DNA of 64,000 nt from Burkholderiales bacterium. GTDB lineage: Bacteria; Pseudomonadota; Gammaproteobacteria; Burkholderiales; Burkholderiaceae_C. This document shows positions 2,001 through 39,088 of this stretch, in pieces; position 1 is the first letter of the stretch; each line of letters opens with the position of its first letter. The stretch covers positions 1 to 64,000 of the forward strand of contig JAGWTU010000010.1 of the NCBI GenBank assembly GCA_028868825.1. Reading direction: 5' to 3'. The notes under the pieces are model-generated. The model had not been told where the DNA came from. It saw only the letters and a program-made list of their open reading frames with translations, and did not search any database. The translations under genes were made by a program, and so were the position numbers.

Positions 2001-2306
2001 CTTGATACTCCCCGGCGCCCGAAGACGCCACCCATAGGATCGAGCGCTTGTAATCATCGAATCAGCGTAACAGCGGCGCAGGCGAAGGTCGATCCCGAAA
2101 GGGCTCATACCCCCTCGGATGAGGTGTCGTTGCGAGGACATCCGGCGCGGAATGCGCCTGCGCGGCGCCCACCGCTAGGGAAATTCCCGCCGTGTCGCCA
2201 ATTGCCAAGGCGATGTCGGCTCGGGGCAATCGCCGCGTATCGATTCACCCGATCCTCGACGCGGGCGTCAGCGCATGCCCCGCGGACCATCCGAGGAGCG
2301 ATCACG
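2001..2306. other. intergenic region with divergent promoters
   Basis: A 306-bp gap between the divergent PEP-CTERM and WS/DGAT genes. It contains one copy of the recurrent TGTC-N17-TGTC element (listed separately). No small ORF with a credible ribosome-binding site is visible. Confidence 0.5.
2184..2229 (+). promoter_or_regulatory. TGTC-N17-TGTC element, copy F (upstream of WS/DGAT)
   Basis: Half-sites TGTC at 2193-2196 and 2214-2217 are exactly 21 bp apart. The core GTGTCGCCAATTGCCAA is identical over 17 bases to the copy at 39051-39067. A GGGCAA at 2224-2229 occupies the place of the CGTCAA seen in the other copies, making this the most diverged of the six. It ends 77 nt before the WS/DGAT start codon and points at it. 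The site is inferred to be an AraC-family activator site. Confidence 0.6.
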
Positions 2307-3845
2307 ATGAAGCAACTATCCGGGGCGGACAACCTGTTCCTGGCGCTCGAACAAGGCAACCAGACGGCGCATGTCGCCGGCCTGGGCCTGTACGACCCGT
2401 CGACGGCACCGGGCGGTGCCGTCCGCTTCAAGGGCATCCTGGGCTATTTCGAGAGCCGGCTCGGCACCTCGAAGGCCTTCCGCCGCCGCCTCGTGCGCGC
2501 GCCGCTGAATCTGGACCGGCCGTATTGGGTCGACGAAGCGACGGTGGACATGGAATTCCATGTCCGCCACATCGCGCTGCCGCAGCCGGGCGACTGGCGT
2601 CAGCTGTGCATCCAGGTCGCGAGGCTGCACGCGCGTCCGCTCGATCTCTCGCGGCCGGCCTGGGAGGCCTACGTGATCGAGGGCCTCGACCATATCGAGG
2701 GCCTGGCGCCGGGCAGTTTCGCGCTCTACATCAAGTTCCACCACGCCGCGGTCGACGGCGAGGCCGGCGCCGCGGTGATCGGCGCGCTGCACTCGCTCAG
2801 CCCGCTGCCCGAGGTGGCGGCGGCGCCGGCCGCGGCGACGATCGCCGACCGCGAGCCGACCACCGTCGAACTGCTGGCGCGCAGCGTCGGCAATCGCTAC
2901 GCGCGGATCAGGCAGGCATCGCGGCTGGCGATCGATCTCGGGCCCGTCGTCTGGCAGTTCGGCCTGCAACAGATCAGGCCGCGCGCGGCCGACGATGCCG
3001 ACGCGGCGGCGCGCGACCCCGATCTTTCGGTCAAGCAGGCGCCGCCGACGCGCTTCAATACCGCGCTCTCGCCGCACCGCGTGATGGACGCGGTGCCGCT
3101 GCCGCTGGACGCGGTCAAGCGCGTGCGCGCCGCCCACCCCGGCGCCACGCTCAACGACATCTTCATGACGGTGAGCGCGGGCGCCCTGCGGCGCTACCTC
3201 GAGAAGAAGAAGGAACTGCCCGAGGCGACGCTCAACGCGATGATCCCGATAAGCCTGCGCGGCGAGATCAAGGACGCCGACGCCGGCAACCAGGTCGGCC
3301 TCTCGGCGATGCCGCTGTTCACGAACATCGCCGGCGAGGGCAAGCGCCTGCAGATGATCCATCGCGGCTCGGCCAAGGGCAAGAGCGACGCGGCCGTGCT
3401 CGGCAAGGACCTGCCGGGCCAGGTGCTGCAGGTGCTGCCGACGTCGGTCGCCGAATTCGCGATGCGGCGTCTGCTGCTGCCCAAGATCAACCTGACGATC
3501 TCGAACGTGCGCGGGCCGAGCGTGCCGCTGTACATGGCCGGCGCGCGGCTGACGGCGTTCATCCCGATCAACATGCTGCTCGACGGCATGGGGCTGAGCC
3601 TCACCGGCTTCAGCTACAACGGCGCGCTGTGGGTCGGCGTGATCGCCTGCCGGCAGATGATGCCCGACCCGGCGCTGTTCGCCCAGGGCCTGCGCGAGAG
3701 CTTCGCAGCGCTGCTGGACGACGCCGATGCCCTACTGGCCAAGGAAGCCCAGGCGGCCAAACCGGCGGCCAGACCCGCAGCCGGGCGCAGCCGTGCCGCG
3801 AAGCCGCCGGCGCGAAAAACCGCCAAGGCCGTCACGGCCGGCTGA
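2307..3845 (+). CDS. wax ester synthase/diacylglycerol acyltransferase (WS/DGAT)
   Basis: A 512-residue acyltransferase of the WS/DGAT family, which transfers an acyl group from acyl-CoA to a long-chain alcohol or diacylglycerol. The HHxxxDG active-site motif is present as FHHAAVDGEAG near residues 147-156. The C-terminal domain contains the family-type segments TLNDIFMTVSAGALR and ISNVRGPS. GAGGAG at 2293-2298 supports the ATG at 2307. The last 35 residues are an Ala/Lys/Arg-rich tail (many AKPAAR/KTAK units), beyond the usual core and probably disordered. A copy of the recurrent TGTC element lies upstream, linking the gene to the lipid-type catabolic operons further along. The acyl acceptor cannot be told from sequence. 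Confidence 0.9.
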   Translation: MKQLSGADNLFLALEQGNQTAHVAGLGLYDPSTAPGGAVRFKGILGYFESRLGTSKAFRRRLVRAPLNLDRPYWVDEATVDMEFHVRHIALPQPGDWRQLCIQVARLHARPLDLSRPAWEAYVIEGLDHIEGLAPGSFALYIKFHHAAVDGEAGAAVIGALHSLSPLPEVAAAPAAATIADREPTTVELLARSVGNRYARIRQASRLAIDLGPVVWQFGLQQIRPRAADDADAAARDPDLSVKQAPPTRFNTALSPHRVMDAVPLPLDAVKRVRAAHPGATLNDIFMTVSAGALRRYLEKKKELPEATLNAMIPISLRGEIKDADAGNQVGLSAMPLFTNIAGEGKRLQMIHRGSAKGKSDAAVLGKDLPGQVLQVLPTSVAEFAMRRLLLPKINLTISNVRGPSVPLYMAGARLTAFIPINMLLDGMGLSLTGFSYNGALWVGVIACRQMMPDPALFAQGLRESFAALLDDADALLAKEAQAAKPAARPAAGRSRAAKPPARKTAKAVTAG

Positions 3846-3917
3846 CAGCCGCCGCCGGACGACAATGGCGCCGGGTCGCATGCCTTCGGCGCGGCCACGT
3901 GCTGGAGACCGACACCC

Positions 3918-6537: not shown

Positions 6538-7008
6538 ATGGGCATGCATCTCCAAGAGCCGGATACCGGCCATGTACTGGCCGTCGACGACTGCGCCACG
6601 ATGCGCGAGATCCTGCGCGCGGCGCTCGAATCGGCCGGCTGCAGCGTGCATCTGGTCGACAGCGGCTGGGCCGCTCTCGAGGCCGCGGGCCGGTCCCGCT
6701 ACGACGCCATCATCCTCGACGTCGAGATGCCGGGACTCGACGGCCTCGCCGTCGGCCGCGCGCTGCGCGAGGACCCGCGCACGGCGCAGGCGATGATCGC
6801 CATCCACACCAGCGTCGACGAGGATGCCGTGCGCCTGGGCTTCAGCCAGTACGACCTCTATCTGCCCAAGGCCTGCAGCCCGCGCGAACTCGGCGAGAGC
6901 GTGCGCCGCCTGATCCAGCGCCGGCGCCCCGCCGCCCAGGCGACCCTGCCGCCGCCGGCATCGGCCCTCGAAGCCATGCGCCTGGGCGGCATCGAGATCA
7001 ACGGCTAG
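6538..7008 (+). CDS. single-domain response regulator (CheY-like receiver)
   Basis: A 156-residue stand-alone receiver domain without an output domain. It has the acidic pair D17-D18, the phospho-acceptor D61 in LDVEMPG, a conserved T91 and K111 (LPKACSP). It therefore acts by phosphorylation-dependent binding to a partner rather than by binding DNA. After residue 123 there is a Pro/Ala-rich tail ending in a short amphipathic stretch. No kinase lies next to it; the partial hybrid kinase at the far end of the window is too distant to pair with it. The start is ATG 6538 or 6544; neither has a strong Shine-Dalgarno. Its TAG overlaps the stop of the convergent GMC gene by 4 nt. Confidence 0.85.
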   Translation: MGMHLQEPDTGHVLAVDDCATMREILRAALESAGCSVHLVDSGWAALEAAGRSRYDAIILDVEMPGLDGLAVGRALREDPRTAQAMIAIHTSVDEDAVRLGFSQYDLYLPKACSPRELGESVRRLIQRRRPAAQATLPPPASALEAMRLGGIEING

Positions 7009-8771
7009 GACGCTGCCGCGGACGCCGGCGCCCGCGACAGCGCGACGGCCTCGGCCAGCAGATCGCCCTCCCCGCCCAGGCGCGAGACCGAGCCCGGCAA
7101 CGGCGCCGAGAAGCGCACCGGCGGCGGCTTGGCGCCGGGGCCGGCGGGCATCTGCGACATCGCGTATTCGCTCAGCGCGAGGATCGTCAGCGACGGATTG
7201 ACGGCCAGGTTGCCGGGAATGATCGAGGCGTCGAGCACGCGCAGATTGCGGTAGCCGAACACCTCGCCGCGCTCGTCGACGACGCCGCTGCCGGCATCGC
7301 CGCCGATCGCGGCGCCGCCCATCACATGGCCGCTGACGGGGATGTCGGCGAGGATGTCGAGCAACACGTTGGCCGGCTCGCCGCCGGTCTGGCGCGCGAA
7401 CAACCGCGCCACGTTCTGGCCGATCGGGAAATAGGTCGTCAGCCGCGCGCTGCCGGGGTCCTGCACCATCGTCGGCCCGCGCCGGAACAGCTTCGTCCAG
7501 GCACGCTGCCAGCGCGCGTCGACCGAGGCGTCGGCGCTCTGCATGATCATCAGCAGCACGCTGTTGCTGGTCTTGCCGAAGGGGTTGAGCAGGCGCAGCG
7601 TCGCCAGCGGCCGGCGCATGCAGTTGAACAGCAGCGCCAGTGGCCGCGGCAGCGCGCCGCGGTCGGTCAGCGGCACCTGGTTGACGCTGAGATACATCGC
7701 GTCCGAGCCCTTGCTGAAGCGCACCGGCTCGATCATCGTGATGTCGTCGGGCTTGAACGCCGCGTTCACGCCCATGCCGACGGGGATCTCATCGGCGCGG
7801 TAGCGGTTCATGTCGAACGAGACGCTGTAGAACGTTTCCGAATTGCAGCGGATCTCGGCGCCCAGGCGGTCGGAGATCCGCGGCAGCGTGCGGTCGCGGT
7901 ATTTGGCGTTCATCAGCAGCTCGACCGTGCCCAGCACGCCCGCCGAGACGACGACGCCGCGCGAGCGCACGACGCTGCGGCGCCGGCGCCGCCCGGTCGA
8001 TTCGACGAGCGTCAGCGCATAGCCGGCGCCGCCGTCGCGCCGGCCCTGGGCGTCGGCCAGTGCCTCGATGCGCACGACCTCCGTTTCCGCGCGCACCTGC
8101 ACGCCGTTGCGTTCGGCGAAATGCAGGTAATTCTTGTCGAGCGTGTTCTTCGCGTTGTAGCGGCAGCCCGTCATGCAGCCGGCGCACATCGTGCACGGCT
8201 CGCGCGCCGGGCCGTCGCCGGCGAAATAGGGGTCGGCGTCGCTGGCCACCTCGCGCTGGTGCGCGTAGTAGGCCGCCGCCTGCGCCAGCTCGTAGGTCGC
8301 GCCGCGGCCCATCTCCTGCGCCACCCGCTGCAGCGCCCGGTCGGCGACGCCCTCGTAGGGGCTCACGGCCACGCCCATCATGCGCTGCGCCAGGCCGTAG
8401 AAAGGCAGCAGCCGCGCATGCCAGTCGGGCCGCGAACGCAGCCAGCCCGGCGCGGCAAAGATGGCCGCATCGGGGATCATGTGCGTGTTCGCGTAGAGCA
8501 GCGAGCCGCCGCCGTAACCGGCCGCGCGCAGGCCGATCATCTTGCGCGTCGGCGTGATCTGCCAGAAGCCCGTCAGCCCCAGGCGCGGCAGCCAGATGAA
8601 TTTCTTCAGTTCGAAATTCGTGCGCGGGAAATCCCCGTTCGCCCAGCGCTTGCCGCGCTCGACGACGAGCGTGCGCCAACCCTTTTCCGACAGTCGCAGC
8701 GCACTCACGGCGCCGCCGAAGCCCGAGCCGATGACGACCTGGTCGAAGTCGAAGGCGGCGTCCGTGGCCAT
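7005..8771 (-). CDS. GMC-family FAD oxidoreductase (cholesterol-oxidase-like)
   Basis: A 588-residue flavoprotein of the glucose-methanol-choline family, oxidising a hydroxyl group with FAD. The dinucleotide motif GSGFGG is at residues 15-20, the YGGGSLLYAN segment near 86-95, and the C-terminal HxMGGAAIG and NPSLTI signatures are present. A cysteine cluster, CTMCAGCMTGC (C193, C196, C199, C203), is the ferredoxin-like motif found in the sterol-oxidase-like branch. There is no signal peptide. It is the last gene of a ten-gene operon, 4 nt after the TPR-like gene. The family and context suggest a large hydrophobic alcohol as substrate; that is inference. Confidence 0.85.
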   Translation of the reverse strand: MATDAAFDFDQVVIGSGFGGAVSALRLSEKGWRTLVVERGKRWANGDFPRTNFELKKFIWLPRLGLTGFWQITPTRKMIGLRAAGYGGGSLLYANTHMIPDAAIFAAPGWLRSRPDWHARLLPFYGLAQRMMGVAVSPYEGVADRALQRVAQEMGRGATYELAQAAAYYAHQREVASDADPYFAGDGPAREPCTMCAGCMTGCRYNAKNTLDKNYLHFAERNGVQVRAETEVVRIEALADAQGRRDGGAGYALTLVESTGRRRRRSVVRSRGVVVSAGVLGTVELLMNAKYRDRTLPRISDRLGAEIRCNSETFYSVSFDMNRYRADEIPVGMGVNAAFKPDDITMIEPVRFSKGSDAMYLSVNQVPLTDRGALPRPLALLFNCMRRPLATLRLLNPFGKTSNSVLLMIMQSADASVDARWQRAWTKLFRRGPTMVQDPGSARLTTYFPIGQNVARLFARQTGGEPANVLLDILADIPVSGHVMGGAAIGGDAGSGVVDERGEVFGYRNLRVLDASIIPGNLAVNPSLTILALSEYAMSQMPAGPGAKPPPVRFSAPLPGSVSRLGGEGDLLAEAVALSRAPASAAAS

Positions 8772-8775
8772 CGCC

Positions 8776-9567
8776 TCAGCTCTTCAGCGCGGCGAGCTGC
8801 TGGCGCGCGGCCGCCTGGTCCATGCGCTGCATCGCGTCGAGCGCGGTGACCCGCATCGCCTGCTCGAGGTGGCTGATCATCGCCCCGCGCTCGGCGTCGC
8901 CGTACATGACCTCGAGGCCGCGCGCGTATTCGATATGCGGCACGACCGATTCGGGCGCCAGACGCAGCGCCTCGTCGTAATGCGCGTGCGCGCCGTCCTG
9001 CGTCGCGCCGTAGAGCATCCTGGCCATCAGCGACCCGGCCTGGTCGGTGATGCCGGCATGCCAGCCGCCGAAGGTCACATGGGCCTCGGCATGGCCGGGT
9101 TCGAGTTCCAGGCAGCGCTCGACCTGCTCCTTGATGCGGCCGCCGAAGCCCTGCGCCAACGCCTCGATCATCGAGATGAACTGGCTGTAGCGACCCATCG
9201 CCACCGCATGCATGTAATGCAGATTGGCCGTCGAGAGGCCACCGGCCTCGGCCTCCTTGCACAGCGCCATCGCCTGCTTGAATTCGGCGATCTTGCGCTT
9301 GTCGTCGCGCTCGATGTATTGGGCGTAGATGGTCGTCGCGAAAGCGGCCGGCACGGCGCCGGCCGGGCCCGCGGCCATGCCGAGTTCGACCGCGCGCGCG
9401 AATTCGCCGAGGTGGTAGGCGCGCCAGGCATCCTGCAGCCGCAGGTCCTGCGGAAAGGGCTCGCGGTTGCCGCGATGCAATTCGTCCCAGCGCTGGCGCA
9501 GCTGATCGCCGGCGAGATCCAGATCGCTCATGTCCACCGGGCAGCCGGTCCATTCATTCGTGCTCAT
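8776..9567 (-). CDS. TPR-like alpha-helical protein of unknown function
   Basis: A 263-residue cytoplasmic protein rich in Ala, Glu and Leu, with TPR-like helix pairs (CLELEPGHAEAHVTFGGWHA, EALRLAPESVVPHIEYARG). No catalytic motif and no signal peptide are visible. ATG at 9567 is preceded by GGAAGGAA at suitable distance; the start lies 14 nt inside the end of the lipoate-ligase-like gene, and the stop is 4 nt before the GMC gene, so it is translationally embedded in the operon. Its position between a ligase for a lipoyl domain and an oxidoreductase suggests a scaffold or chaperone role, but nothing in the sequence proves that. Confidence 0.65.
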   Translation of the reverse strand: MSTNEWTGCPVDMSDLDLAGDQLRQRWDELHRGNREPFPQDLRLQDAWRAYHLGEFARAVELGMAAGPAGAVPAAFATTIYAQYIERDDKRKIAEFKQAMALCKEAEAGGLSTANLHYMHAVAMGRYSQFISMIEALAQGFGGRIKEQVERCLELEPGHAEAHVTFGGWHAGITDQAGSLMARMLYGATQDGAHAHYDEALRLAPESVVPHIEYARGLEVMYGDAERGAMISHLEQAMRVTALDAMQRMDQAAARQQLAALKS

Positions 9568-10294
9568 AAGCCATTCCTTCCTTTTCCCATTCGCTTGCAT
9601 CCGGGCGCGCCGGGGCCCACGGGCCGACCAGCAGATGCGCGCGCCACTGCGCCGGGTGCCATGCCGCCATGCCGGTCATCCCGGCCGCGGCCAATTCATG
9701 CATCGCCGATCGCTCGCAGCGACGGCCGAGGTGGATGGTTTCGAGCATTTCCCACGGCGTGGCCGCGAGCAGCAGCCCGGCGCTGAGCAGGCAGCCCCAA
9801 CGGCCACGGCTTTGCGCCAGGCCCACGAGCTTGCGGCCATCGGCGTCGAGCAACTCGCCATGCGAGAGCCCGGCAAAGCAGATTCCCTCGACGCCGGCAT
9901 CGCGCGCCGCGGCCTTGTGCCGGGCGATATCCGCCGCCTGCGCGAGCCGGGTCGGCACGCCGACCGCGGCCAGCCGCTCGCGCAGATGGGCGCCCAGCGC
10001 GTTGAACGCGGCGATGGGACCACCCTGGCTCAGCGGATGCGCTGCCGGCAGCAGCAGGTCGAGGCCGAGCAGCCAGGGCCCGGCGAGCACGACGCCGCCA
10101 CCGCTGCGGCGCTGCACGACATCGCAGCCGGCGGCGCGCGCGCGCGCGGCGATCGCCCCGTCAGCGGGGCCGCGGCGGCCGTGGATCAGCGCCGGCGCGG
10201 CGTAGTGCACGAGCATCGCCTGCGGCGCATCGATGCCGGCCGCGATGCGCTCGTCGATCCAGGCCTGCTCGGCGCGCGCCGCATCGGGCTGCAT
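9554..10294 (-). CDS. lipoate-protein ligase A-like (BPL/LplA/LipB fold)
   Basis: A 246-residue member of the biotin/lipoate ligase fold. RRSGGGVVLAGPWLLGLDL matches the RR(S/T)GGGxV nucleotide/lipoyl-adenylate loop of LplA, and GRKLVGLAQSRGRWG corresponds to the conserved lysine-containing K(I/L)xGxAQ segment. The ATG at 10294 follows GAGG at 5 nt; a GTG at 10300 is also in frame. The gene immediately follows the orphan lipoyl domain, so the simplest inference is a dedicated ligase that loads that domain. It is distant enough from house-keeping LplA that the substrate (lipoate, octanoate or another cofactor) should be left open. Confidence 0.75.
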   Translation of the reverse strand: MQPDAARAEQAWIDERIAAGIDAPQAMLVHYAAPALIHGRRGPADGAIAARARAAGCDVVQRRSGGGVVLAGPWLLGLDLLLPAAHPLSQGGPIAAFNALGAHLRERLAAVGVPTRLAQAADIARHKAAARDAGVEGICFAGLSHGELLDADGRKLVGLAQSRGRWGCLLSAGLLLAATPWEMLETIHLGRRCERSAMHELAAAGMTGMAAWHPAQWRAHLLVGPWAPARPDASEWEKEGMAYEHE

Positions 10295-10307
10295 CGCCAC
10301 CTCGCAC

Positions 10308-10562
10308 TCAGGCGGGCAGGATCTCGGCCAGCACCTGGCCGCGGGCGAAATTGCCCTGCGGCTCGACGAGCAGCCGCATGACCGTGCCGTCGACCGGCGA
10401 CTCGAGCTCGATCGTCGACTTGACCATCGCCACGATGGCGATCGTCTGCCCCGCCTGGACGACCGTCCCCGGCCGCACCGACCATTCGTCGAGCAGCGCC
10501 TCGGTGCCCTCTTCGACGTCGGTCCAGGCCTCGTCGTCCAGTCGTATCTCGATCATCGTCAT
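10308..10562 (-). CDS. stand-alone lipoyl (biotinyl/lipoyl-attachment) domain protein
   Basis: An 84-residue protein that is nothing but a lipoyl domain: a beta-barrel with two halves (residues about 3-45 and 50-82) and the swinging-arm lysine K48 in IVAMVKSTIEL, followed by the hallmark SPVDGTV turn. Biotin carriers have MKM at this point, so VKS favours lipoate. It lies 7 nt after the E1 beta gene and 13 nt before the ligase. Normally this domain is the N-terminus of an E2 acyltransferase; no E2 core is encoded in this operon or anywhere in the window. It probably receives the acyl or redox group from the adjacent E1. Confidence 0.85.
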   Translation of the reverse strand: MTMIEIRLDDEAWTDVEEGTEALLDEWSVRPGTVVQAGQTIAIVAMVKSTIELESPVDGTVMRLLVEPQGNFARGQVLAEILPA

Positions 10563-10569
10563 CGCAGCC

Positions 10570-12638: not shown

Positions 12639-12676
12639 AGTGAGTCTCTCCATGCCGTTCGCTGCGCCGGCGCCGC

Positions 12677-13483: not shown

Positions 13484-13498
13484 GTTCTCTCCACGGGC

Positions 13499-16011: not shown

Positions 16012-16034
16012 GGTGGCTGACCTTCCGGTGGGTT

Positions 16035-17108: not shown

Positions 17109-17158
17109 TTGACGCCGTCGGACATTCATTTGCCATTTGCAGACACTCGGACAAACCC
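17109..17158 (-). promoter_or_regulatory. TGTC-N17-TGTC element, copy A (upstream of ten-gene operon)
   Basis: On the minus strand the half-sites TGTC are 21 bp apart (plus-strand GACA at 17121 and 17142), followed by CGTCAA at 17114-17109. GACATTCATTTGCCATTTGC is shared in register with the other copies. It ends 52 nt before the GTG of the epimerase gene and lies about 150 nt from the divergent cupin gene, so it could serve both. Confidence 0.65.
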
Positions 17159-20241: not shown

Positions 20242-20264
20242 GGTGTCCTCGTTGATCGATGGTT

Positions 20265-21131: not shown

Positions 21132-21135
21132 CGCT

Positions 21136-22323: not shown

Positions 22324-22333
22324 GGCGGGTGAC

Positions 22334-26777: not shown

Positions 26778-26789
26778 GACGAACGGCGT

Positions 26790-28394: not shown

Positions 28395-28440
28395 TTGACG
28401 GGCGCTGACATTCGTTTAACACTTTGCGACACCCGGGCAA
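28395..28440 (-). promoter_or_regulatory. TGTC-N17-TGTC element, copy B (acyl-CoA operon / AraC gene)
   Basis: Plus-strand GACA at 28407 and 28428, exactly 21 bp apart, gives the TGTC repeats on the minus strand; TTGACG at 28395-28400 and the CCCGGGCAA end at 28432-28440 complete it. It is almost identical to copy C. It lies 54 nt from the ligase ATG on the minus strand and 38 nt from the AraC ATG on the plus strand, so both activation and autoregulation are possible. Confidence 0.7.
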
Positions 28441-31004: not shown

Positions 31005-31050
31005 TTGACGGGTGTCGACATTCGCTTGACACTTTGCGACACCCGGGCAC
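31005..31050 (-). promoter_or_regulatory. TGTC-N17-TGTC element, copy C (secreted protein / AraC gene)
   Basis: Plus-strand GACA at 31017 and 31038 (21 bp apart), TTGACG at 31005-31010 and CCCGGGCA at the other end. Nearly identical to copy B. It lies 62 nt from the secreted-protein ATG and 26 nt from the second AraC ATG. Confidence 0.7.
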
Positions 31051-31076: not shown

Positions 31077-32123
31077 ATGACCGCATTGGTTCGCGCCGCC
31101 TGCCTGCAGGGCTACGAGGCTCTGGCCCGCTCGATCGGCGTCGACGTCGAACGCGAACTGGCACGCGTCGGCCTGTCGACCGACAGCCTGGCGGACCCCG
31201 ACGCGCTGATACCCTATGTGTCGCGCTTCCATCTGCTCGAGCACACCGCCGTCTCGGGCCATTGCCCGGATTTCGGCCTGCGCCTGTCGGAAAGCCAGGG
31301 TGCCGATGTCCTCGGACCGCTGTCGGTGCTGCTGCGACACGCAGCCACGCTGGCCGACGCGATGGACCTGGCCTCGCGCCACCTCTTCGTGCACAGCCCG
31401 GCGGTCCGCTTCAACGTGCTGCCGGTGGCCTCGCGGCCGAGCGAGGTCGACCTGGCGCTGTCGTTCGAGCTGCCGCATCTGCCGCCCTGCGGCCAGTCGC
31501 TCGAGCTCGTGCTGGGCCTGCTCGCCTGCGTGATGCGCGAGATCACGCAGGCTCGCGTGCGGCCGCTGCTCGCCTTGATCCCGCACGCGCGCATCGGGCC
31601 GGCGCGCAGCTACACCCGCGTGCTCGATTGCGAATGCCGCTTCGAGGCGCCGTCGCTGGCGCTGCGGATTCCCGCGGCGCAGCTGGCGCGCCCGCTGCCC
31701 GGGCACAACCCGATGCTGCGGCAGCTGGCGCAGAACTATGTCGACCAGCATCTCGGCTCGCGCGACCGCATCTTTGCCGACCTCGTGCGCTCGATGGTGC
31801 GGCGCCTCATCGGCTCGGGCCAGGCGACGCAGGCCGACATCGCCGGCCGGCTGTCGATCCACACGCGCACGATGCAGCGTCGCCTGCTCGACGAAGGTCA
31901 GCGCTACGAGGACATCGTCGACGCCGTGCGCAAGGAGATGCTGGTCGACCTGCTGGGCCGCTCGCCCGCGTTGAGCCTGTCGCAGATCGCGCTGATGCTC
32001 GGCTATTCGGAGCAGGCAGCGCTGACGCGCGCCTGCCGCCGGCTGTTCGGCTGCACGCCGACCGAATTGCGCGAGACGCGAGCGGCGGCGCTGCGCCCCG
32101 GCGCCGTCACCGCCGCGCCGTAA
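31077..32123 (+). CDS. AraC-family transcriptional regulator, paralogue 2
   Basis: A 348-residue regulator with the same architecture as its neighbour at 28478: a ligand-binding domain (HGYEALARSIGVDVERE-like start, here QGYEALARSIG) and a double HTH domain (IAGRLSIHTRTMQRRLLDEG; LSLSQIALMLGYSEQAALTR) ending CRRLFGCTPTELR. The recognition helices are almost the same in the two paralogues, so they should read the same operator, while scattered substitutions in the sensing half could give different ligands. Its ATG (31077) is 26 nt from copy C. It converges on the RND transporter gene at a 18-nt gap. Confidence 0.9.
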   Translation: MTALVRAACLQGYEALARSIGVDVERELARVGLSTDSLADPDALIPYVSRFHLLEHTAVSGHCPDFGLRLSESQGADVLGPLSVLLRHAATLADAMDLASRHLFVHSPAVRFNVLPVASRPSEVDLALSFELPHLPPCGQSLELVLGLLACVMREITQARVRPLLALIPHARIGPARSYTRVLDCECRFEAPSLALRIPAAQLARPLPGHNPMLRQLAQNYVDQHLGSRDRIFADLVRSMVRRLIGSGQATQADIAGRLSIHTRTMQRRLLDEGQRYEDIVDAVRKEMLVDLLGRSPALSLSQIALMLGYSEQAALTRACRRLFGCTPTELRETRAAALRPGAVTAAP

Positions 32124-32141: not shown

Positions 32142-34559
32142 TCAATGCGCGTGGCTGGTGATGGCCGCGCGCGACTTCTTCGTCACCAGGAAGGCCGCCA
32201 GCGCCGGCAGCAGCAGGATGGCGCCGAGCATGTTCACGAGGAACATGAAGGCCAGCAGGATGCCCATGTCGGCCTGGAACTTCAGCGCCGAGAGCGACCA
32301 CGTCGCCACCGAGATCGTCATCGTCACGGCCGTGAACACCGACGCCGTGCCGCGCTGCTTGAGCGCGTCGACGAAGGCCATGCGCAGCGTCATCTGCGGC
32401 TCGGTCTTCAGCGCATGCGTGATGCTCTCGAAGAGATAGATGCCGTAGTCCACGCCCACGCCCACGCCCAGCGCCACCACCGGCAGCGTGTTGACCTTCA
32501 CCCCGATGCCCAGCAGCGTCATCACCGCGTTGCACAGCAGCGTCACCAGCGCCAGCGGCGCGATGATGCACAGCGTCACGCGCAGGCTGCGGAACATCAC
32601 CAGGCACAGCAGCGACACCGATGCGAACAGCGCCAGGTTGACCCAGCCATCGGCCGCCTCGACGACCTCGTTGGTCGCCGCCATCACGCCGACGTTGCCG
32701 CTGGCCAGGCGGAAGTTCACGCGATCGATGTCGCCGCCTGCGGCCTTGAAGGCCTTGATGCGCTCGACGATGTGGCCGATCGTGCCGGCCTGGTGGTTGT
32801 TCGTGAACACCGACAGCGCCATCGCCTTGCAGCCCGAGCTCATGAACTCGTTGCCCATGCGCGTGGCCGCGCTCACACCCTGCCCCAGCTGCGCCTTGTC
32901 CTCGGGCAGCATGCGCCACTTGATGAAGTTCTCGGCATAGCTCTGGTTGACCTGCTTGATCAGGCTCGCCAGGCTGCGCACGTCGGCCACGCCCTCGGTC
33001 TGGCGCATCTGCAGGTCGAACTCCTCGATGCGGTCCATCACCGCCGGCTCCAGGCAGGGCGCGTCGCTGTCCTTGTTGCCCTCGGCGATGACCTGCAGCA
33101 TGTCCACGCCGATGGCGTAGTCCTTGGTGATGGCCTGCACGTCGCGGTTGTAGCGCGCGTCGGGGCGCAGCTCGGGCACGCCCACGCCGAGGTCGCCGAC
33201 CTGCAGCTTGCGCGCGATGCTGTAGCCCACGCCGGCGATCACCGCGGCGATGACCACCGCGACGATGGCTGCGCGCGGCTCGGCCAGCGCCCCCAGCTTC
33301 GTCCACAGGCCGTGGCCCAGCGTCTCGCGGCCGCGGCATTTGCGCGCCTGCTCCGGCGTCAGGCAGCGGTACGACAGCAGGATCGGCAGCAGCATCTTGT
33401 TGGTGATGATCATCACCGTCACGCCCAGCGTGGCGGTGATGGTGAGCTCGCGCACCATCTCGATCTTGACGAAGGCGATGACCATGAACCCGAGCGCATT
33501 GGCCAGCAGCGCCACGGCGCCGGGGATGAAGAGTTTCTCGAAGCACAGGCGCGAGGCGGACACGCCGTCGTGGCCGGCCAGGGTCTCGAGTTTCCAGCCA
33601 TTGGTCATCTGCACGGCGTGCGACACGGCGATCGAGAAGATCAGGAACGGCACCAGGATCGACATCGGGTCCAGCGCCAGCCCCAGCAGCGGCAGCAGCC
33701 CGAGCAGCCAGATCACCGGCACCACCGCGCAGACGATGGCGTAGAAGGTCAGCATCAGCGAGCCCGAGTACCAGTACAGCAGCAGCGTCGTGATGACGAA
33801 GGCGATGGCGAAGTACACGAGCACGCCGGCCGCACCGTCGGCGATGTCGCCGATCGACTTGGCGAAGCCGATCTCCTGCACCTGGTAGTTGCCCTTCTCG
33901 TACTTCGCGCGGATGGCCTCGAGCTGGTGGCCGATGGCGCGCAGATCGAGCCGCGCGCCGGTCTCGGGGTCCTTGTCCTGCAGCGTGGCCACGACCATCG
34001 CCGCCGTGTGATCGCTGGCGACGATGCGGCCGACCCAGTCGGACTTGAGCGTGGCCGCGCGCACGCCGGCCAGCGCCTGCGCGCTGCCGTCGAAGTTCGA
34101 GGGCACGAGCACGTCGCCCTTGAAGCCGTCCTCGACGACTTCGGTGTAGCGCACGTTGGGCGTGACCAGCGAGGTCACCGAGCCGCGCTCCACGCCCTTG
34201 ATGTAGAAGACCTCCTCGGTCAGCGCGCGCAGCGTGTCGATGAATTCCTTGGTGTAGATGTCGCCCTGCTTGGTCTTGAGCGAGACGATGATCTTGTTGG
34301 CGCCGCCGAAGGTGTTGGCGTACTGCTGGAAGGTCTGCATGTACTCGTGCTGCAGCGGGATCATCTTGGAGAACCCGGCCGAGACCTGCAGCCGGCTCGC
34401 CGAGGCGCCCAGCACCAGCGTGATGGCCACGAACAGCCACAGCAGCGGCTTGCGGTAATGGAAGATGAAGTACGAGGCCTTGCCGATCCAGCCCGGCGAG
34501 AATTTGCCGCGCGTGAGTTCGGGGTCGTCGTCGAGCAGGTGCGAAGTGGAAGTCGTCAT
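32142..34559 (-). CDS. RND-superfamily transporter (MMPL/hopanoid-type)
   Basis: An 805-residue inner-membrane protein with two repeats of one helix, a large periplasmic loop (about residues 55-225 and 450-610) and five-to-six-helix bundles, in the MMPL/HpnN-like layout. Motifs include SRRLQVSAGFSKM-type loop entry, PFLIFSIAVSHAVQM and the second-repeat equivalent VVALGVGVGVDYGIYLFE. Single-subunit RND proteins of this kind move lipophilic compounds. ATG at 34559 overlaps the YCF48-like stop (ATGA). It is the last gene of the porin operon. DUF1302, DUF1329, YCF48 and RND genes recur together in bacteria growing on steroids and other hydrophobic substrates, which supports uptake or export of such a compound. 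Confidence 0.87.
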   Translation of the reverse strand: MTTSTSHLLDDDPELTRGKFSPGWIGKASYFIFHYRKPLLWLFVAITLVLGASASRLQVSAGFSKMIPLQHEYMQTFQQYANTFGGANKIIVSLKTKQGDIYTKEFIDTLRALTEEVFYIKGVERGSVTSLVTPNVRYTEVVEDGFKGDVLVPSNFDGSAQALAGVRAATLKSDWVGRIVASDHTAAMVVATLQDKDPETGARLDLRAIGHQLEAIRAKYEKGNYQVQEIGFAKSIGDIADGAAGVLVYFAIAFVITTLLLYWYSGSLMLTFYAIVCAVVPVIWLLGLLPLLGLALDPMSILVPFLIFSIAVSHAVQMTNGWKLETLAGHDGVSASRLCFEKLFIPGAVALLANALGFMVIAFVKIEMVRELTITATLGVTVMIITNKMLLPILLSYRCLTPEQARKCRGRETLGHGLWTKLGALAEPRAAIVAVVIAAVIAGVGYSIARKLQVGDLGVGVPELRPDARYNRDVQAITKDYAIGVDMLQVIAEGNKDSDAPCLEPAVMDRIEEFDLQMRQTEGVADVRSLASLIKQVNQSYAENFIKWRMLPEDKAQLGQGVSAATRMGNEFMSSGCKAMALSVFTNNHQAGTIGHIVERIKAFKAAGGDIDRVNFRLASGNVGVMAATNEVVEAADGWVNLALFASVSLLCLVMFRSLRVTLCIIAPLALVTLLCNAVMTLLGIGVKVNTLPVVALGVGVGVDYGIYLFESITHALKTEPQMTLRMAFVDALKQRGTASVFTAVTMTISVATWSLSALKFQADMGILLAFMFLVNMLGAILLLPALAAFLVTKKSRAAITSHAH

Positions 34560-35536
34560 GGCGTCACCGTCCTGGCTCCGCGGTCACCCACGGTCAACAA
34601 TCGGCCGTCGGCCAGCGCCTGCACCTGGGCGATGCCGGCGCGCAGCGGGCCCTTCAGGCGCTGGTAGCTGCGGCCGTCGTCACGGCTGACGTCGAGCAGT
34701 CCGGCGTAGCCGACGAGGACGATGCGGCCGTCGGCGAGTTGCTGCGCGTTCATCACCGAGCGTTCGTCGGCGATGTCGATGACGGTCCAGCTCGCGCCGC
34801 CGTCCTCCGAGCGGCAGACATGGCCGCGCATGCCGTAGATGACGATCGCGCCGCTCTTGGTCGCCAGGCCGCCGAACCAGGACCCCTTGTAGGGCGATTC
34901 GATGCGCTTCCAGTTCACGGCATCGTCGGAGACGGCCAGCGTGGCCGATTCGCCGACGAGGACGTACCGATGGGCGCCGGCGGCGAAGACGCGCGAGATG
35001 TGGCGGTCGAAGTCGGGCTCGAGGATCTTGTGGCGTGTCCACGTCTGGCCGCCGTCTCGCGTCTCGATATAGAGGCCGAAGCCGCCGTAGGCGACGTAGC
35101 GCTGCTCGCCGAGCCAGGTCACGCCCAGCAGCGAGTCGCTGCCGGCGTCGGGCACGACGACCCGCGTCCAGTGGCTGCCGGCATCGCTCGTGCGCAGCAC
35201 GGTCGCGTCGTGGCCGACGGCGATGCCGTTGTTCGCATCGGCGAAGGCCGCCATCGTCAGCGTGCGCGTCACCGCCGTGCGCTGCGCCTGCCAGGTCTTG
35301 CCTTCGTCGCCCGAGAGGAAGACGACCCCGCGCTCGCCCACCGCCACGAGCCGCTGGCCGGCACGTTCGACGTCGAGCAGGATCATGCGGTCGGCGTGGG
35401 TCGGGACGAAGCTGGGGGCGTAGGCAGCGGCAGAGGCCGCGGCCGCCGCCGGCGACGCCGCGTCGTCGGCGAACGCGATCAACGGCGCCACGGCGAGCGC
35501 GAGCAGCGCCGTCGCGCACAGCGGGAATTTGAGCAT
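34556..35536 (-). CDS. YCF48-related beta-propeller protein, exported
   Basis: A 326-residue protein with a signal peptide (LCATALLALAVAPLIAFA) and repeated BNR/WD-type blades of the YCF48/photosystem-assembly-like family (GDEGKTWQAQ, SDAGSHWTRV, RDGGQTWTRH, SEDGGASWTVI, DDGRSYQRL). The Asp-box-like D(G)G-(K/S)-xW signature occurs five times, consistent with a beta-propeller. The second of two starts, ATG at 35536, matches the signal peptide best. It is predicted to sit in the periplasm and partner the RND protein, as its homologues do; no enzymatic activity is implied. Confidence 0.82.
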   Translation of the reverse strand: MLKFPLCATALLALAVAPLIAFADDAASPAAAAASAAAYAPSFVPTHADRMILLDVERAGQRLVAVGERGVVFLSGDEGKTWQAQRTAVTRTLTMAAFADANNGIAVGHDATVLRTSDAGSHWTRVVVPDAGSDSLLGVTWLGEQRYVAYGGFGLYIETRDGGQTWTRHKILEPDFDRHISRVFAAGAHRYVLVGESATLAVSDDAVNWKRIESPYKGSWFGGLATKSGAIVIYGMRGHVCRSEDGGASWTVIDIADERSVMNAQQLADGRIVLVGYAGLLDVSRDDGRSYQRLKGPLRAGIAQVQALADGRLLTVGDRGARTVTP

Positions 35537-35584
35537 CGCAGGGATTCCATTGAGCACGCGCCGGGTTCGGCGCGTGCCGGTAAT

Positions 35585-36931
35585 TCAGCGCGTGCCGGCG
35601 CGGCGCAAGGCGTCGGGCTCGAAGTCGGCGAGCTTGCCCTTGACGTTGAACTTCCACTGCGGTTCCTGCGAACCGAGCGAGGCGATGAAGTAACCGCCGT
35701 TCGACAGGTCGTGCCAGATATTGGCCGAATACCACATCACGTCGGCGTCGTAGAACTGCATCACCGGGTGCACCCCGACGCGCCACAGATTGCCGCGGCT
35801 GTCGTACGCGTCCTCCCACAGCACGCTCCAGCTGTCCTCGTCGACGTAGAACGTGCGGCGCGCGAAGGCATGCTTCTGGCCGGGCTTGAGCGTCGCGTCG
35901 ACGACCCAGACGCGGTGCGTCTCGTAGCGGATCAGGTCCGGGTTGGGCGTGCCGGGCTTGGTGACGTCGGCGTATTTCGTCGACTTCTCCATCAGCTTGT
36001 AATCGTTGTACGGGACGATCATCTCCTTCTTGCCGACGAGCTTGAAGTCGAAGCGGTCGGGGGCGCCGTTGTAGCCGTCGTACTGGTCGGTGTAGCGCAT
36101 CCCCTCGGTGCCGTCGGTGATCGAGTCGTAGGCCAGATCGGGGGCGCGGCGCACGCGGCGCTGGCCGGCGTTGTAGACCCAGGCCGAACGCGCCTCCTTG
36201 ACCTGGTCCAGCGGCTCGTGCACGAGAACCACGCTGCCCACGAGCGCCGCCGGCGCCAGCAGCGTGTTCATGTAGTACAGCAGCCGGTTCGGCTCCGACT
36301 TGTCCATGTTCTGCGCGAAGACGCGCACTTCCTGGGCGCGGATGTCGAAGGTGTCGCCGTTGGCGCGCACCGGGAACGAGTCGTAGATGCGGTCGATGCC
36401 GCCGCCGAGGTAGCGGATATTGTGGTTCCACATCACCTCGAGGCCGTTCTTGGGGAACGGGAACGGGGTCGTCGTGCCGCCGACGTTGGCCAGGCCGAAG
36501 CCCTGCAGTTCGACCTTGGCGGCCTGCTCCTTGACCTTGTCGGTGATCGCCTTGGGCAACGCGGCGGTGCGATGCGTCGGGTAGACGTTCATCTTGAACG
36601 TGCCGATCTTCTCGAGCAGCGCCTGCGCGCCGGCCGGCAGCTGGGCCTTGTACTGCGCCGCGTTCGCCTTCGTGATCGTGAACTTGGGCTTCTCGGCCGC
36701 GAACGGGTCGATATAGCCCTTGCCGGCGACATAGCCCGCGGGCGGGCTGGCCAGGCCACCGGTCCAGGCCGGGATCACGCCATCGGCGCTGCCGGCCTTC
36801 TCGGCTCCGGTGGGCGTCAGCTCGTTGCCGAGCTTGGCGATGTCGGCGGCACTGGCGCCGGCGTACGCGGCGCCGCTGGACATCAAGGCGGCAAGGCCGG
36901 CCGCGGCGAGGAAATGGCGGTTGAGATTCAT
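35585..36931 (-). CDS. DUF1329 outer-membrane lipoprotein-sorting-like protein
   Basis: A 448-residue exported protein with a signal peptide (LNRHFLAAAGLAALMSSGAAYA, cleavage near residue 23). The DUF1329 pattern is clear: KLGNELTPTGAEKAGSADGVIPAW at the start, conserved VYPTHRTAALP, NGLEVMWNHNIRY, EARSAWVYNAGQRRVRRAPD and RRTFYVDEDSWSVLWEDAYDSRG blocks. The family folds like LolA/LppX-type beta half-barrels and binds hydrophobic ligands. GGAGA lies 5 nt before the ATG at 36931. It lies 28 nt after the DUF1302 gene and probably carries the substrate from outer membrane to the RND pump. Confidence 0.88.
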   Translation of the reverse strand: MNLNRHFLAAAGLAALMSSGAAYAGASAADIAKLGNELTPTGAEKAGSADGVIPAWTGGLASPPAGYVAGKGYIDPFAAEKPKFTITKANAAQYKAQLPAGAQALLEKIGTFKMNVYPTHRTAALPKAITDKVKEQAAKVELQGFGLANVGGTTTPFPFPKNGLEVMWNHNIRYLGGGIDRIYDSFPVRANGDTFDIRAQEVRVFAQNMDKSEPNRLLYYMNTLLAPAALVGSVVLVHEPLDQVKEARSAWVYNAGQRRVRRAPDLAYDSITDGTEGMRYTDQYDGYNGAPDRFDFKLVGKKEMIVPYNDYKLMEKSTKYADVTKPGTPNPDLIRYETHRVWVVDATLKPGQKHAFARRTFYVDEDSWSVLWEDAYDSRGNLWRVGVHPVMQFYDADVMWYSANIWHDLSNGGYFIASLGSQEPQWKFNVKGKLADFEPDALRRAGTR

Positions 36932-36959
36932 GGTGTCTCCAGGTGGTGCGGGCGCGCGA

Positions 36960-38864
36960 TCAGAATTTGCCGGTCCAGGCGACCGAGACGAAGCCCTTGT
37001 CGCGATTCGCGTCGTACTTCGCCGAGTTGTTGTAGGTGATGTACGAAAGGTCGAAAGCCCACTTCTTGGCATAGTCGAACTTGGCCGCCAGAGCGTAGGT
37101 CGTGCGGTCCTTGATGAACTGCGAATCGATCGAATAGCCGCTGAGGTCGCGCTTGACGAAGAGGCTGGGCGTGAAGGCGAACGACGAGCCGAAGATGCCG
37201 TTGTAGGTCATCGACGCCAGCACGTTGATGCCGCTGGCGTTCTTCGTCACGTAGCCGTCGTTGCGGCAGCCGTCGGGTTGCACGTTCGTGGTCAGGCAGC
37301 CGTTGGGCTGCGCCGCCGCGGGCAAGGCCGCATTCGCGCCCTGGCCGAAGATGAAGGCGCGACCGTAGCGCAGACCGCCGGCCGTGTGACTGGGCACGTT
37401 GTTCTGCTGCATCGCGACCTCGGCGGCGATGGTCAGGCTGTCGGCGCCGAGCACGCCGCTGAACAGCTTGACCGCGTTGGCCTGCAGTTGCGTCACGTTG
37501 AACAGGTCGTAAGCGTGGTACACGCCGCCCACGGTGCCGATCACGGCGGTGTAGCGCGGGTCCTGGGTCACGAGGCCGGCGTGACCGATGAAAGCGCCGA
37601 CGAGGTCGCTGCCGTTGATTTGCGCCGGCACATCCTTCTGGTAACTCAATTCGGCGCCGGTCGACCAGCCCAGCAGCGTCGTCGACGCGCTGATGCCGAA
37701 GATCTTGGTCTTGCCCGGGTATTCCCAGAACGCCGAGCCCGGCGTCAGCCCCAGCGGGGCCAGCGCCTGCACGGCCATGAACAGGCCCTGCGATTTGAGG
37801 ATGGCGACCTGCTTGGCCGTGCCGTTCAACTGGTCGGTGCCGACGGTGGCGCTGATGATGGGCGTGCGCGGTACGAGTTCCTCGGCATAGAAGCCGAATT
37901 CGGTGTCGATGGCCTCGACCGGGACGCGCAGCGCCAATCCGAACTGGCCGCCGTTGGCGGGCTTGGGACCATTGGCCAGCGGCATGTACAGCCCGCCGGC
38001 CGACGCGCTGACGTTGCTGCCGGCCACGGCGGTCGCGATATTGCAATTGCCGGTCTGGTTGGAGAGGTCATTCTCGGCCGGGCCGAAATAGGTGCCGCAA
38101 CCCGGGATCACCGTCGAGACCGATTTGAACTGGTAGAAGCCCTCGAGCGAGACGCCGCCGCCCAGGCCCAGGTTCGCCGAGAGCATCGGGATCGGCAGCA
38201 GGAATTCCTTGACCTCGGTGCCGGCCCCGCGTGTGGCGGCGATGAGGTCGACCGGCATCGTCTTGTTGATGCCCTGGGTGAACAGGCTCTCGCCCCAGTT
38301 GATGACCTGGTTGCCCAAGCGCACCTGCAGCGGATGGCTCGCGAGGTCGAACTGCGTGTACGCGTAGGCGTCCATCAGCTGCAGGCCCTGGAAGCGCGAG
38401 GCCAGCGGCACGCCGGTGTCGCTCAAGGGCTGGGTGTTGGTGTAGCGCACCGGGCGCTGCGCCTGGTTGCCGAAGCGCGGCAGGCTGTTGACGAGCACAT
38501 CGTCGTACCAGCCGCGCACACGCAACAGGCCGCCGCTGCCGTTCTTGGCCAGCGAGACGTCGCTCGTGAACTTGAGCAGGCGCGAGATCGTGTCGCCCTT
38601 GTTGTAGTTCAGGTTGCTCGAGTCGGTGTTGGACCCACCCATGCCGCCGACCTTGCCGACGATGGCGCCGTCGGCCTTCGAGAACAGCAGCGGATTCTGG
38701 TTGCCGGCACGCCAGGCATTGCTGACGCTGATCGACGTGTTCCACACGCCCTGCCAGCCGTCGCCGACTTCGAAATCGAGTGCCGATGCGGGGCCGGCAG
38801 CCACCGCGACGAGGCAGGCCGCAGCCACACGGTGGCGGGTCGACGGCATGGTGTTCTTGTGCAT
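36960..38864 (-). CDS. DUF1302 porin-like outer-membrane protein
   Basis: A 634-residue protein with a signal peptide (TRHRVAAACLVAVAAGPASA) followed by the DUF1302 start LDFEVGDGWQGVWNTSISVSNAWR. Many alternating amphipathic strands ending in aromatic residues and a C-terminal FVSVAWTGKF (terminal phenylalanine) indicate an outer-membrane beta-barrel. GAGGAG lies 11 nt before the ATG at 38864. It heads the transport operon (DUF1302, DUF1329, YCF48, RND), 75 nt downstream of copy D of the TGTC element. Its homologues often accompany degradation of steroids and other poorly soluble compounds, and a role as a diffusion channel for the operon's substrate is inferred. Confidence 0.85.
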   Translation of the reverse strand: MHKNTMPSTRHRVAAACLVAVAAGPASALDFEVGDGWQGVWNTSISVSNAWRAGNQNPLLFSKADGAIVGKVGGMGGSNTDSSNLNYNKGDTISRLLKFTSDVSLAKNGSGGLLRVRGWYDDVLVNSLPRFGNQAQRPVRYTNTQPLSDTGVPLASRFQGLQLMDAYAYTQFDLASHPLQVRLGNQVINWGESLFTQGINKTMPVDLIAATRGAGTEVKEFLLPIPMLSANLGLGGGVSLEGFYQFKSVSTVIPGCGTYFGPAENDLSNQTGNCNIATAVAGSNVSASAGGLYMPLANGPKPANGGQFGLALRVPVEAIDTEFGFYAEELVPRTPIISATVGTDQLNGTAKQVAILKSQGLFMAVQALAPLGLTPGSAFWEYPGKTKIFGISASTTLLGWSTGAELSYQKDVPAQINGSDLVGAFIGHAGLVTQDPRYTAVIGTVGGVYHAYDLFNVTQLQANAVKLFSGVLGADSLTIAAEVAMQQNNVPSHTAGGLRYGRAFIFGQGANAALPAAAQPNGCLTTNVQPDGCRNDGYVTKNASGINVLASMTYNGIFGSSFAFTPSLFVKRDLSGYSIDSQFIKDRTTYALAAKFDYAKKWAFDLSYITYNNSAKYDANRDKGFVSVAWTGKF

Positions 38865-38939
38865 TCCGGTTGTCTCCTCGGTGGTCGGAACGTGGGCTGT
38901 GTCAGGGTCCGAATGGTCGAGGCCGCGCGGCGCGGCGGC

Positions 38940-38985
38940 TTGACGCGGTTAGACATTCACTTAACTCTGAGCGACACCTGGGATA
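38940..38985 (-). promoter_or_regulatory. TGTC-N17-TGTC element, copy D (porin/RND operon)
   Basis: Plus-strand GACA at 38952 and 38973 (21 bp apart) and TTGACG at 38940-38945. The CTTAACTCTGAGCGACACCT core is slightly more diverged than B and C. It ends 75 nt before the DUF1302 ATG and is oriented toward it. Confidence 0.65.
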
Positions 38986-39042
38986 GTCCCAACGATGCAA
39001 CCACCGCCCGAGCGCGTTGTCGGCGCCCGGCGGACTCGGTAA

Positions 39043-39088
39043 TTGCCCGGGTGTCGCCAATTGCCAAATGAATGTCTGCACTCGTCAA
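39043..39088 (+). promoter_or_regulatory. TGTC-N17-TGTC element, copy E (DUF3604/sulfatase operon)
   Basis: TGTC at 39052 and 39073 (21 bp apart), TTGCCCGG at the left and CGTCAA at 39083-39088 at the right. The core GTGTCGCCAATTGCCAA is identical to copy F near 2192. It points at the DUF3604 gene, 127 nt upstream of its ATG, and opposes copy D in the same gap. Confidence 0.65.

What the first reader, a model, noticed from the sequence alone, without database searches (positions are those of the whole stretch)
2184..39088. Six copies of a TGTC-N17-TGTC element mark a candidate AraC regulon across 37 kb
Seen directly: six copies (near 2193, 17109, 28395, 31005, 38940, 39043) share two TGTC (GACA) half-sites exactly 21 bp apart, a conserved TTGACG/CGTCAA end and CCCGGG-type other end. 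Each copy, read in the TGTC direction, is placed 52-127 nt upstream of the first gene of a different unit: WS/DGAT, ten-gene E1/sulfatase operon, acyl-CoA operon, secreted protein, porin-RND operon, DUF3604-sulfatase operon. Known: AraC-family dimers often bind direct repeats two helical turns apart. Inferred: the two AraC paralogues bind these sites and the units form one catabolic/uptake system.
Basis: partly seen in the sequence, partly recalled or inferred. Interest (0 to 1): 0.85.

Follow-up and report, generated by a model that had tools for sequence, protein, structure and literature searches.

The report
Six AraC operators, one catabolic island
Six copies of one DNA switch sit in front of six gene groups on a single bacterial island and are probably where the island's own two regulator proteins bind; the same kind of switch stands next to related regulators in distant bacteria.

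Summary
Six 37-bp elements at the stated places score far above everything else in the window, and two whole-genome scans report only these six (part of the candidates scored). The element has four boxes, not two: a 21-bp tandem repeat TGTC-N6-TGNYAA-N5-TGTC-N6-CGTCAA. A -10-like hexamer follows at one fixed distance in five of six copies. This is the layout of an activator at about -70 to -34, as for XylS and CphR. The AraC link has independent support: a matrix from the window sites alone finds the element upstream of AraC relatives, beating all controls in 64 of 80 loci; 79 of 80 best hits read away from AraC. Best explanation: operators of the island's two VirS-like AraC paralogues, a local six-operon regulon for a hydrophobic, possibly sulfated or isoprenoid, compound. 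The operator type is known (ArgR ARG box; repeats predicted for SlfR); this regulon and the breadth of the code were not found in my open-access paper searches. Binding, effector and substrate are untested.

The parts
2193..2229 (+). operator copy 1, upstream of WS/DGAT; weak last box (GGGCAA); -10-like hexamer at 2251-2256
17109..17145 (-). operator copy 2, upstream of the epimerase/sulfatase/E1/GMC unit; -10-like hexamer at 17082-17087
28395..28431 (-). operator copy 3, upstream of the acyl-CoA ligase/carboxylase unit and divergent from AraC1; -10-like hexamer at 28368-28373
31005..31041 (-). operator copy 4, upstream of the secreted protein and divergent from AraC2; -10-like hexamer shifted by one base (30977-30982)
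38940..38976 (-). operator copy 5, upstream of the DUF1302/DUF1329/YCF48-like/RND unit; -10-like hexamer at 38913-38918
39052..39088 (+). operator copy 6, upstream of the DUF3604/sulfatase unit; -10-like hexamer at 39110-39115
28478..29533 (+). AraC1: PF12625 + HTH_18 regulator, 78% identical to AraC2
31077..32123 (+). AraC2: PF12625 + HTH_18 regulator; the profile of its family finds VirS as nearest solved structure (8rcx, E 1e-86)
2307..3845 (+). unit 1: wax ester synthase/diacylglycerol acyltransferase
7005..17057 (-). unit 2 (extent inferred from gene order, first start codon GTG chosen by me): NAD-epimerase-like, type-I sulfatase, VOC protein, SDR, E1 alpha, E1 beta, lipoyl domain, lipoate-ligase-like, unknown, GMC oxidoreductase
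18799..28340 (-). unit 3 (extent inferred): acyl-CoA ligase, carboxyltransferase, biotin carboxylase, BKACE, acyl-CoA dehydrogenase, SDR, aldehyde dehydrogenase
29530..30942 (-). unit 4: secreted-looking protein of 470 aa, no Pfam or NCBIfam family at E 0.001
32142..38864 (-). unit 5: DUF1302, DUF1329, YCF48-like, RND (MMPL) transporter; same four parts as AmeABCD
   Evidence: paper PMC6394551
39216..47852 (+). unit 6 (extent inferred): DUF3604, type-I sulfatase, PPIase, second DUF3604

Best explanation
Each element is the operator of the island's own AraC-family regulators (AraC1 and/or AraC2). A dimer lies on two 16-bp half-sites, TGTC-N6-NGNYAA, spaced 21 bp (two helical turns); the two helix-turn-helix motifs of each monomer would read the two boxes of a half-site. 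With the -10-like hexamer at +59 to +64, the transcription start falls near +71, so the operator spans about -70 to -34 and its last two bases overlap the -35 region. That is the position of an effector-dependent class II activator. On sensing an effector, the regulators would switch on six units together: outer-membrane/RND transport, a secreted protein, sulfatases and DUF3604 proteins, CoA activation and oxidation, and wax ester/triacylglycerol storage. Copies 3 and 4 also lie in the regulators' own upstream regions, so autoregulation is likely. Shown by computation: the sites, their exclusivity within the scans' limits, spacing and -10-like position, and the conserved AraC association. Inferred: binding, activation rather than repression, autoregulation, effector and pathway.
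For: Six copies and no seventh reported in 5.84 Mb (pattern scan). The two AraC genes are the only regulators found among the ORFs that I put through Pfam between 2 and 48 kb, and each is divergent from a site-bearing promoter. Of 14 same-family AraC homologues (39-54% identical), 14 of 14 have their best hit on the strand reading away from AraC and 12 of 14 have p<=0.01 against shuffles. Of 80 relatives, 64 beat all 60 control windows of their own locus and 79 of 80 read away from AraC; with the first listed locus of each genus or MAG group, 22 of 30 beat all 100 controls and 29 of 30 read away. As a blind test, model R1 in 59 other same-genus genomes gave two hits, and both were the divergent promoter of another AraC about 30% identical. 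The -10-like hexamer peaks at one offset: mean score 2.01 against 0.67, p 0.00002, not corrected for choosing the offset. The HTH regions of the two paralogues are nearly identical (helix placement recalled). The operator position equals that of CphR, -69 to -35 (PMC6205950), and the overlap with -35 that of XylS (PMC4225500). In 18 of 80 relatives a homologue of a window-unit gene begins within 1 kb on the divergent side, 10 of them the second sulfatase; 13 of the 18 also beat all controls (counted).
Against: No binding or expression data. 16 of 80 relatives did not beat all controls, and rank depends on the draw: L091 beat all 60 controls but not all 100. Two same-family relatives (L043, L045) show only one good half-site, and R2 finds nothing in those two genomes, G584 and G036 (2 of 14 without a hit). 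The motif type is shared by AraC proteins only about 30% identical, so the motif alone does not prove which regulator binds. Copy 2193 has a weak second half. The -10-like hexamer has 3 of 6 TATAAT letters in each copy, and copy 31005 is off by one base. In 32 named-genome relatives its peak is weaker and spread over +59/+60. Homologues of window units also lie on the other side of AraC: 8 of 80 loci on its own strand and 4 more convergent, starting or ending 1-2 kb after its start. The nearest solved relative, VirS, is reported to lose operator binding on ligand while its operon is induced (PMC13234193), which looks like repression. Many of the 80 loci are related mycobacteria, so they are not independent.
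Confidence: 0.85

Rival explanations
1. Same operators and same regulators, but the AraC pair represses and the effector releases it, as the reported behaviour of VirS suggests.
For: Family profile A3 finds VirS as the closest solved structure. In PMC13234193 a compound that binds VirS lowers its operator binding in a reporter system and induces the operon (passages). The element abuts the promoter, so a bound protein could block polymerase.
Against: The element lies upstream of and only touches -35, the class II activator position of XylS and CphR. The inferred -35 hexamers (+36 to +41) match TTGACA in 0-3 of 6 letters, as expected if an activator is needed (read).
Confidence: 0.12
2. The elements are bound by a different AraC or another regulator encoded elsewhere in the genome; the two island AraC genes are bystanders.
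For: The motif type stands next to AraC proteins only about 30% identical.
Against: No further site is reported anywhere else in the genome, within the scans' limits. The element tracks the closest AraC relatives, 14 of 14 same-family homologues by orientation. No AraC at E<=1e-40 was found in 59 other same-genus genomes, and R1 hits in those genomes were two weak ones only.
Confidence: 0.05
3. The copies are remnants of duplicated or mobile DNA, alike by descent rather than by function.
For: Copies 3 and 4 lie beside duplicated AraC genes (78% identical) and share flanking letters.
Against: Conservation is confined to boxes at fixed phase while most N6 and N5 letters vary, and the same boxes recur in other phyla at the same relative place. 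All six read toward a start codon 88-164 nt from the first TGTC.
Confidence: 0.02

Closest known systems
ArgR ARG box of Pseudomonas (AraC/XylS family)
   Same: 16-bp half-site starting TGTCGC and ending AA, in tandem with 5 bp between (21-bp period), second repeat less conserved (PMC10963909, passages)
   Different: Consensus G at position 13 is present in only 1 of 6 first half-sites here (G is at 12). ArgR belongs to arginine control and, as recalled, lacks the PF12625 domain.
SlfR of Psychrobacter plasmid pP62BP1
   Same: PF12625 AraC protein divergent from a sulfatase/GMC/aldehyde dehydrogenase/CoA ligase operon; its predicted repeats TTGA-N6-AGGACA are, on the other strand, TGTCCT-N6-TCAA, a 16-bp half-site of the same plan (PMC3346939, passages and section 19)
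   Different: One operon rather than six; metallo-beta-lactamase-type sulfatase rather than type I; repeats predicted, not tested.
XylS/Pm and CphR
   Same: Two direct repeats about two turns apart, operator at about -69 to -35 (CphR), second repeat overlapping -35 by two bases (XylS) (passages)
   Different: Half-site letters differ: TGCA-N6-GGNTA.
VirS/mymA of mycobacteria
   Same: Same AraC branch (nearest solved structure), target operon under the virS-mymA intergenic region (passages)
   Different: Reported behaviour looks like ligand-released repression. I found no operator letters in the passages seen.
AmeABCD monoterpene transport cassette
   Same: Unit 5 has the same four parts: DUF1302, DUF1329, YCF48-like, RND (PMC6394551, passages and section 11)
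   Different: Substrate here unknown; the word AraC does not occur in that paper's main text.

Membership tests
AraC/XylS regulators with PF12625 (VirS/QhpR-like branch) | PF12625 N-terminal domain plus two-HTH C-terminal domain | tested here: met
   both AraC1 and AraC2 above the PF12625 and HTH_18 cut-offs; for AraC2 the QhpR model gives 168 bits, below its 250-bit cut-off; VirS 8rcx E 1e-86 for the family profile
AraC/XylS regulators with PF12625 (VirS/QhpR-like branch) | binds the tandem repeat and controls transcription | not testable with these tools
   only comparative association
XylS-type class II direct-repeat operator | two direct repeats about two helical turns apart, second overlapping -35 | tested here: inconclusive
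   21-bp period in all six; the overlap with -35 rests on a predicted -10-like hexamer at +59 to +64 in five of six copies, +60 to +65 in one; no mapped transcription start
XylS-type class II direct-repeat operator | letters TGCA-N6-GGNTA | tested here: not met
   letters are TGTC-N6-TGNYAA / TGTC-N6-CGTCAA
ArgR ARG box | TGTCGC-N6-G-N-AA in tandem with 5 bp between | tested here: not met
   TGTCGC in 5 of 6 first halves, AA in 6 of 6 and the 5-bp gap are met, but G at position 13 is in 1 of 6
ArgR ARG box | bound by an ArgR orthologue under arginine control | not tested
   no search for an ArgR orthologue was made
SlfR-type operator | TGTCCT-N6-TCAA direct repeats | tested here: not met
   TGTC (both halves, 6 of 6) and TCAA (5 of 6 second halves, 1 of 6 first halves) fall at the right spacing, but positions 5-6 are not CT in any window half-site; CT does occur in some relatives
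AmeABCD-type cassette | DUF1302 + DUF1329 + YCF48-like + RND transporter in one unit | tested here: met
   Pfam DUF1302, DUF1329, PSII_BNR and MMPL above cut-off against the description
AmeABCD-type cassette | RND protein of the HAE3 family | tested here: inconclusive
   HAE3 model is the best NCBIfam match but at 127 bits, below its 352-bit cut-off
AmeABCD-type cassette | monoterpene transport | not testable with these tools
   no substrate data

The most novel reading that the evidence does not exclude
TGTC-N6-NGTCAA, repeated with a 21-bp period and followed by a -10 at a near-fixed distance, is a shared operator code of a whole AraC branch (VirS/QhpR-like) across Pseudomonadota, Actinomycetota and Myxococcota, so its regulons could be read from sequence. 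The window's island is a large case built by gathering under one code units that elsewhere stand singly beside such AraC genes (sulfatase, acyl-CoA ligase, E1, epimerase, WS/DGAT).
Probability: 0.6. Interest if true: 0.65.

Novelty: new member of a known kind. Interest (0 to 1): 0.52.

Why it matters
Most AraC-family regulators have no known operator (recalled). Here one element marks a six-unit regulon clearly in one genome, and its match to the promoters of distant relatives gives a testable operator code for a branch that includes VirS. It also ties genes of unknown role (DUF3604, DUF1302/DUF1329, the secreted protein) to one probably inducible programme, which narrows the search for their substrate.

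Tried and rejected
The plain pattern TGTC-N17-TGTC was not used alone as a definition, because two of its eight window matches are not elements. The two-mismatch genome pattern gave 11 places outside the island against 1 in all for its reversed control. Scored with the six-site matrix they reach at most 15.0, far below the real copies, so I treat them as composition effects; their gene context was not read.

I asked whether the island occurs elsewhere. The secreted protein has matches in 5 of 368 other class genomes, but model R2 finds no site in the 11 loci held for its matches outside the island, three of them in the window's own genome (loci have about 1.5 kb of flank). No second copy of the whole island was found; I searched genomes only with the AraC and the secreted protein.

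The first named-genome scan with the two AraC paralogues alone found nothing; the allowed second scan with the 16-sequence alignment gave 161 relatives, of which the best 80 were kept. Paper searches: QhpR, a TGTCAA direct repeat of AraC proteins, and AraC regulon comparisons listed nothing that I judged relevant; the search with Arabinose_bd led to the SlfR paper, the XylS search to the XylS and CphR papers, and VirS papers seen gave no operator letters (listing, 88 listing, 90, 91 passages). The claim that this operator breadth is undescribed rests only on these open-access searches. The plasmid collection holds 58 records with AraC relatives, each under 60% identical; their promoters were not read.

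Limits: the genome search scores only part of its first-look candidates (150 of 576, 150 of 320, 99 per genome, at most 5 per genome), so weak sites or homologues can be missed. Model R2 was trained on 12 relatives' sites, so its hits at those places are not independent. For three of these 12 (L044, L046, L047) I moved the register by 21 bp by hand so that their good half-site became the second one; carry that choice, searches do not. L043 and L045 were left out of R2 and of the statistics. The 32 named-genome loci were picked by me from the 64 that passed. At least two of the 14 same-family loci are the same records as two of the 80 (contig lengths 678475 and 60757), and others probably are too. 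The AraC beside L071 was recognised by eye from its translation, without a family search.

Full report
What is there. Six elements lie at 2193-2229(+), 17109-17145(-), 28395-28431(-), 31005-31041(-), 38940-38976(-) and 39052-39088(+). The plain pattern occurs 8 times against 1.03 expected, and two of the eight are not elements. The column table shows four boxes: TGTC at 1-4, TGNYAA at 11-16 (AGTTAA in copy 38940), TGTC at 22-25 and CGTCAA at 32-37 (GGGCAA in copy 2193). The second half is the first shifted by 21 bp, so this is a direct repeat of a 16-bp half-site with 5 bp between. Leave-one-out scores are 29.4-47.5; with the full matrix the best non-site in the window scores 13.7.

Exclusivity. 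Model R1, built from the six, reports exactly the six in the 5.84-Mb genome at E<=10. Model R2, built from 18 sites including 12 of relatives, reports the same six. Only 150 first-look candidates were scored in each. A pattern scan with up to two mismatches gave 17 places: five exact, all in the island; copy 2193; and 11 others, which score at most 15.0.

Promoter anatomy. A -10-like hexamer, 3 of 6 TATAAT letters in each copy, lies at +59 to +64 in five copies and one base later in the sixth. Its mean weighted match at that offset is 2.01 against a null of 0.67 (p 0.00002, offset chosen after looking), and no other common offset passes 1.38. In 12 same-family relatives the same offset stands out (2.62; L043 and L045 left out, three registers moved by hand). 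In 32 of the 64 named-genome relatives that passed, picked by me, the peak is weaker and spread over +59/+60 (1.39 and 1.67). With a start near +71 the operator spans about -70 to -34. A GGG-N5-CCC block just upstream is also conserved in the window (31 of 36 letters, maximum 22 in 20,000 draws, positions chosen after looking); 6 of 14 same-family relatives keep the CCC at that place. Its role is unknown.

Link to AraC. Two AraC genes, 78% identical, lie beside copies 3 and 4 and point away from them. No homologue at E<=1e-40 was found in 59 other same-genus genomes, and none at E<=1e-60 in 368 other class genomes (at most 5 candidates scored per genome). In 398 other family genomes 14 have one at E<=1e-50. 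In all 14 the best matrix hit within 220 bp upstream reads away from AraC, 12 of them with p<=0.01. In 80 relatives from a named-genome scan, 64 beat all 60 control windows and 79 read away from AraC. With the first listed locus per genus or MAG group, 22 of 30 beat all 100 controls and 29 of 30 read away. The control scan of same-genus genomes gave two weak hits among 59 (23.1 and 20.7 bits), and both turned out to be promoters divergent from another AraC about 30% identical. An R2 hit outside its training set in G590 again lies beside an AraC-like gene, recognised by eye. R2 found no site in 2 of the 14 family genomes, G036 and G584. These tests are computational; binding was not shown.

What the units are. 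Pfam and NCBIfam give WS/DGAT; an epimerase/sulfatase/E1/GMC unit, whose GMC protein is nearest to a cholesterol oxidase model but below its cut-off (487 against 850 bits); an acyl-CoA ligase/carboxylase/BKACE/acyl-CoA dehydrogenase unit; a secreted-looking protein without family; a transport unit with the same four parts as AmeABCD (PMC6394551, section 11); and a DUF3604/sulfatase unit. In P. putida, DUF1302 and DUF1329 proteins are reported essential for metabolism of Tween20 (PMC10866462, passages). In 18 of 80 relatives a homologue of a window-unit gene begins within 1 kb on the divergent side: the second sulfatase in 10, the epimerase in 5, the acyl-CoA ligase in 2 and E1 in 1; 13 of these 18 beat all controls. 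For comparison, 8 of 80 have one on AraC's own strand starting 1-2 kb after AraC's start, and 4 more have a convergent one ending there (counted). So the unit genes cluster with such AraC genes on both sides, more often on the divergent side. Many of these loci are related mycobacteria. The common theme is hydrophobic, esterified or sulfated compounds; the substrate here is not settled.

Comparison. The half-site resembles the ArgR ARG box (PMC10963909, passages) and has the plan of the repeats predicted for SlfR, read on the other strand (PMC3346939, section 19). The operator position equals that of CphR and XylS (PMC6205950 and PMC4225500, passages). The nearest solved relative is VirS. It is reported to lose operator binding on ligand while its operon is induced (PMC13234193, passages), so repression must stay open as a rival.

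Verdict. It is a new regulon with a known type of operator; the wider value is the apparent operator code for this AraC branch.

Noticed in passing
window 28428-28452: A further TGTC lies 21 bp upstream of copy 3, so three TGTC boxes stand in phase there; no third full half-site was seen.
   Followed up: partly
about 3 to 13 bp upstream of each copy's first TGTC: GGG-N5-CCC block conserved just before the element, at sites with and without an adjacent AraC gene; role unknown.
   Followed up: partly
own genome contig C39: 2203-3540, 3594-4886, 8879-10186: Three homologues (37-48% identical) of the familyless secreted protein of unit 4, without R2 sites in the loci held.
   Followed up: partly
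window 3918-6338: Large multihaem cytochrome with TPR repeats directly after WS/DGAT.
   Followed up: no
window 50321-59207: Cluster with HPPD, three FAA hydrolase family proteins, HpcH/HpaI aldolase, LigB domain and aldehyde dehydrogenase, which looks like aromatic compound breakdown next to the island.
   Followed up: no
window 39216-41144 and about 45600-47852: Two DUF3604 proteins in one unit with a sulfatase carrying CAPSR; the sulfatase of unit 2 shows no C/S-x-P-x-R in the stretch checked.
   Followed up: partly
window 63055-63966: Short protein with a histidine kinase ATPase domain followed by a receiver domain, near the window's end.
   Followed up: no
window 18799-20241 and L084, L089, L090, L091: The aldehyde dehydrogenase of unit 3 is 76-80% identical to genes next to AraC relatives in Roseateles/Paucibacter records, far above the AraC identity, which suggests gene exchange.
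   Followed up: partly
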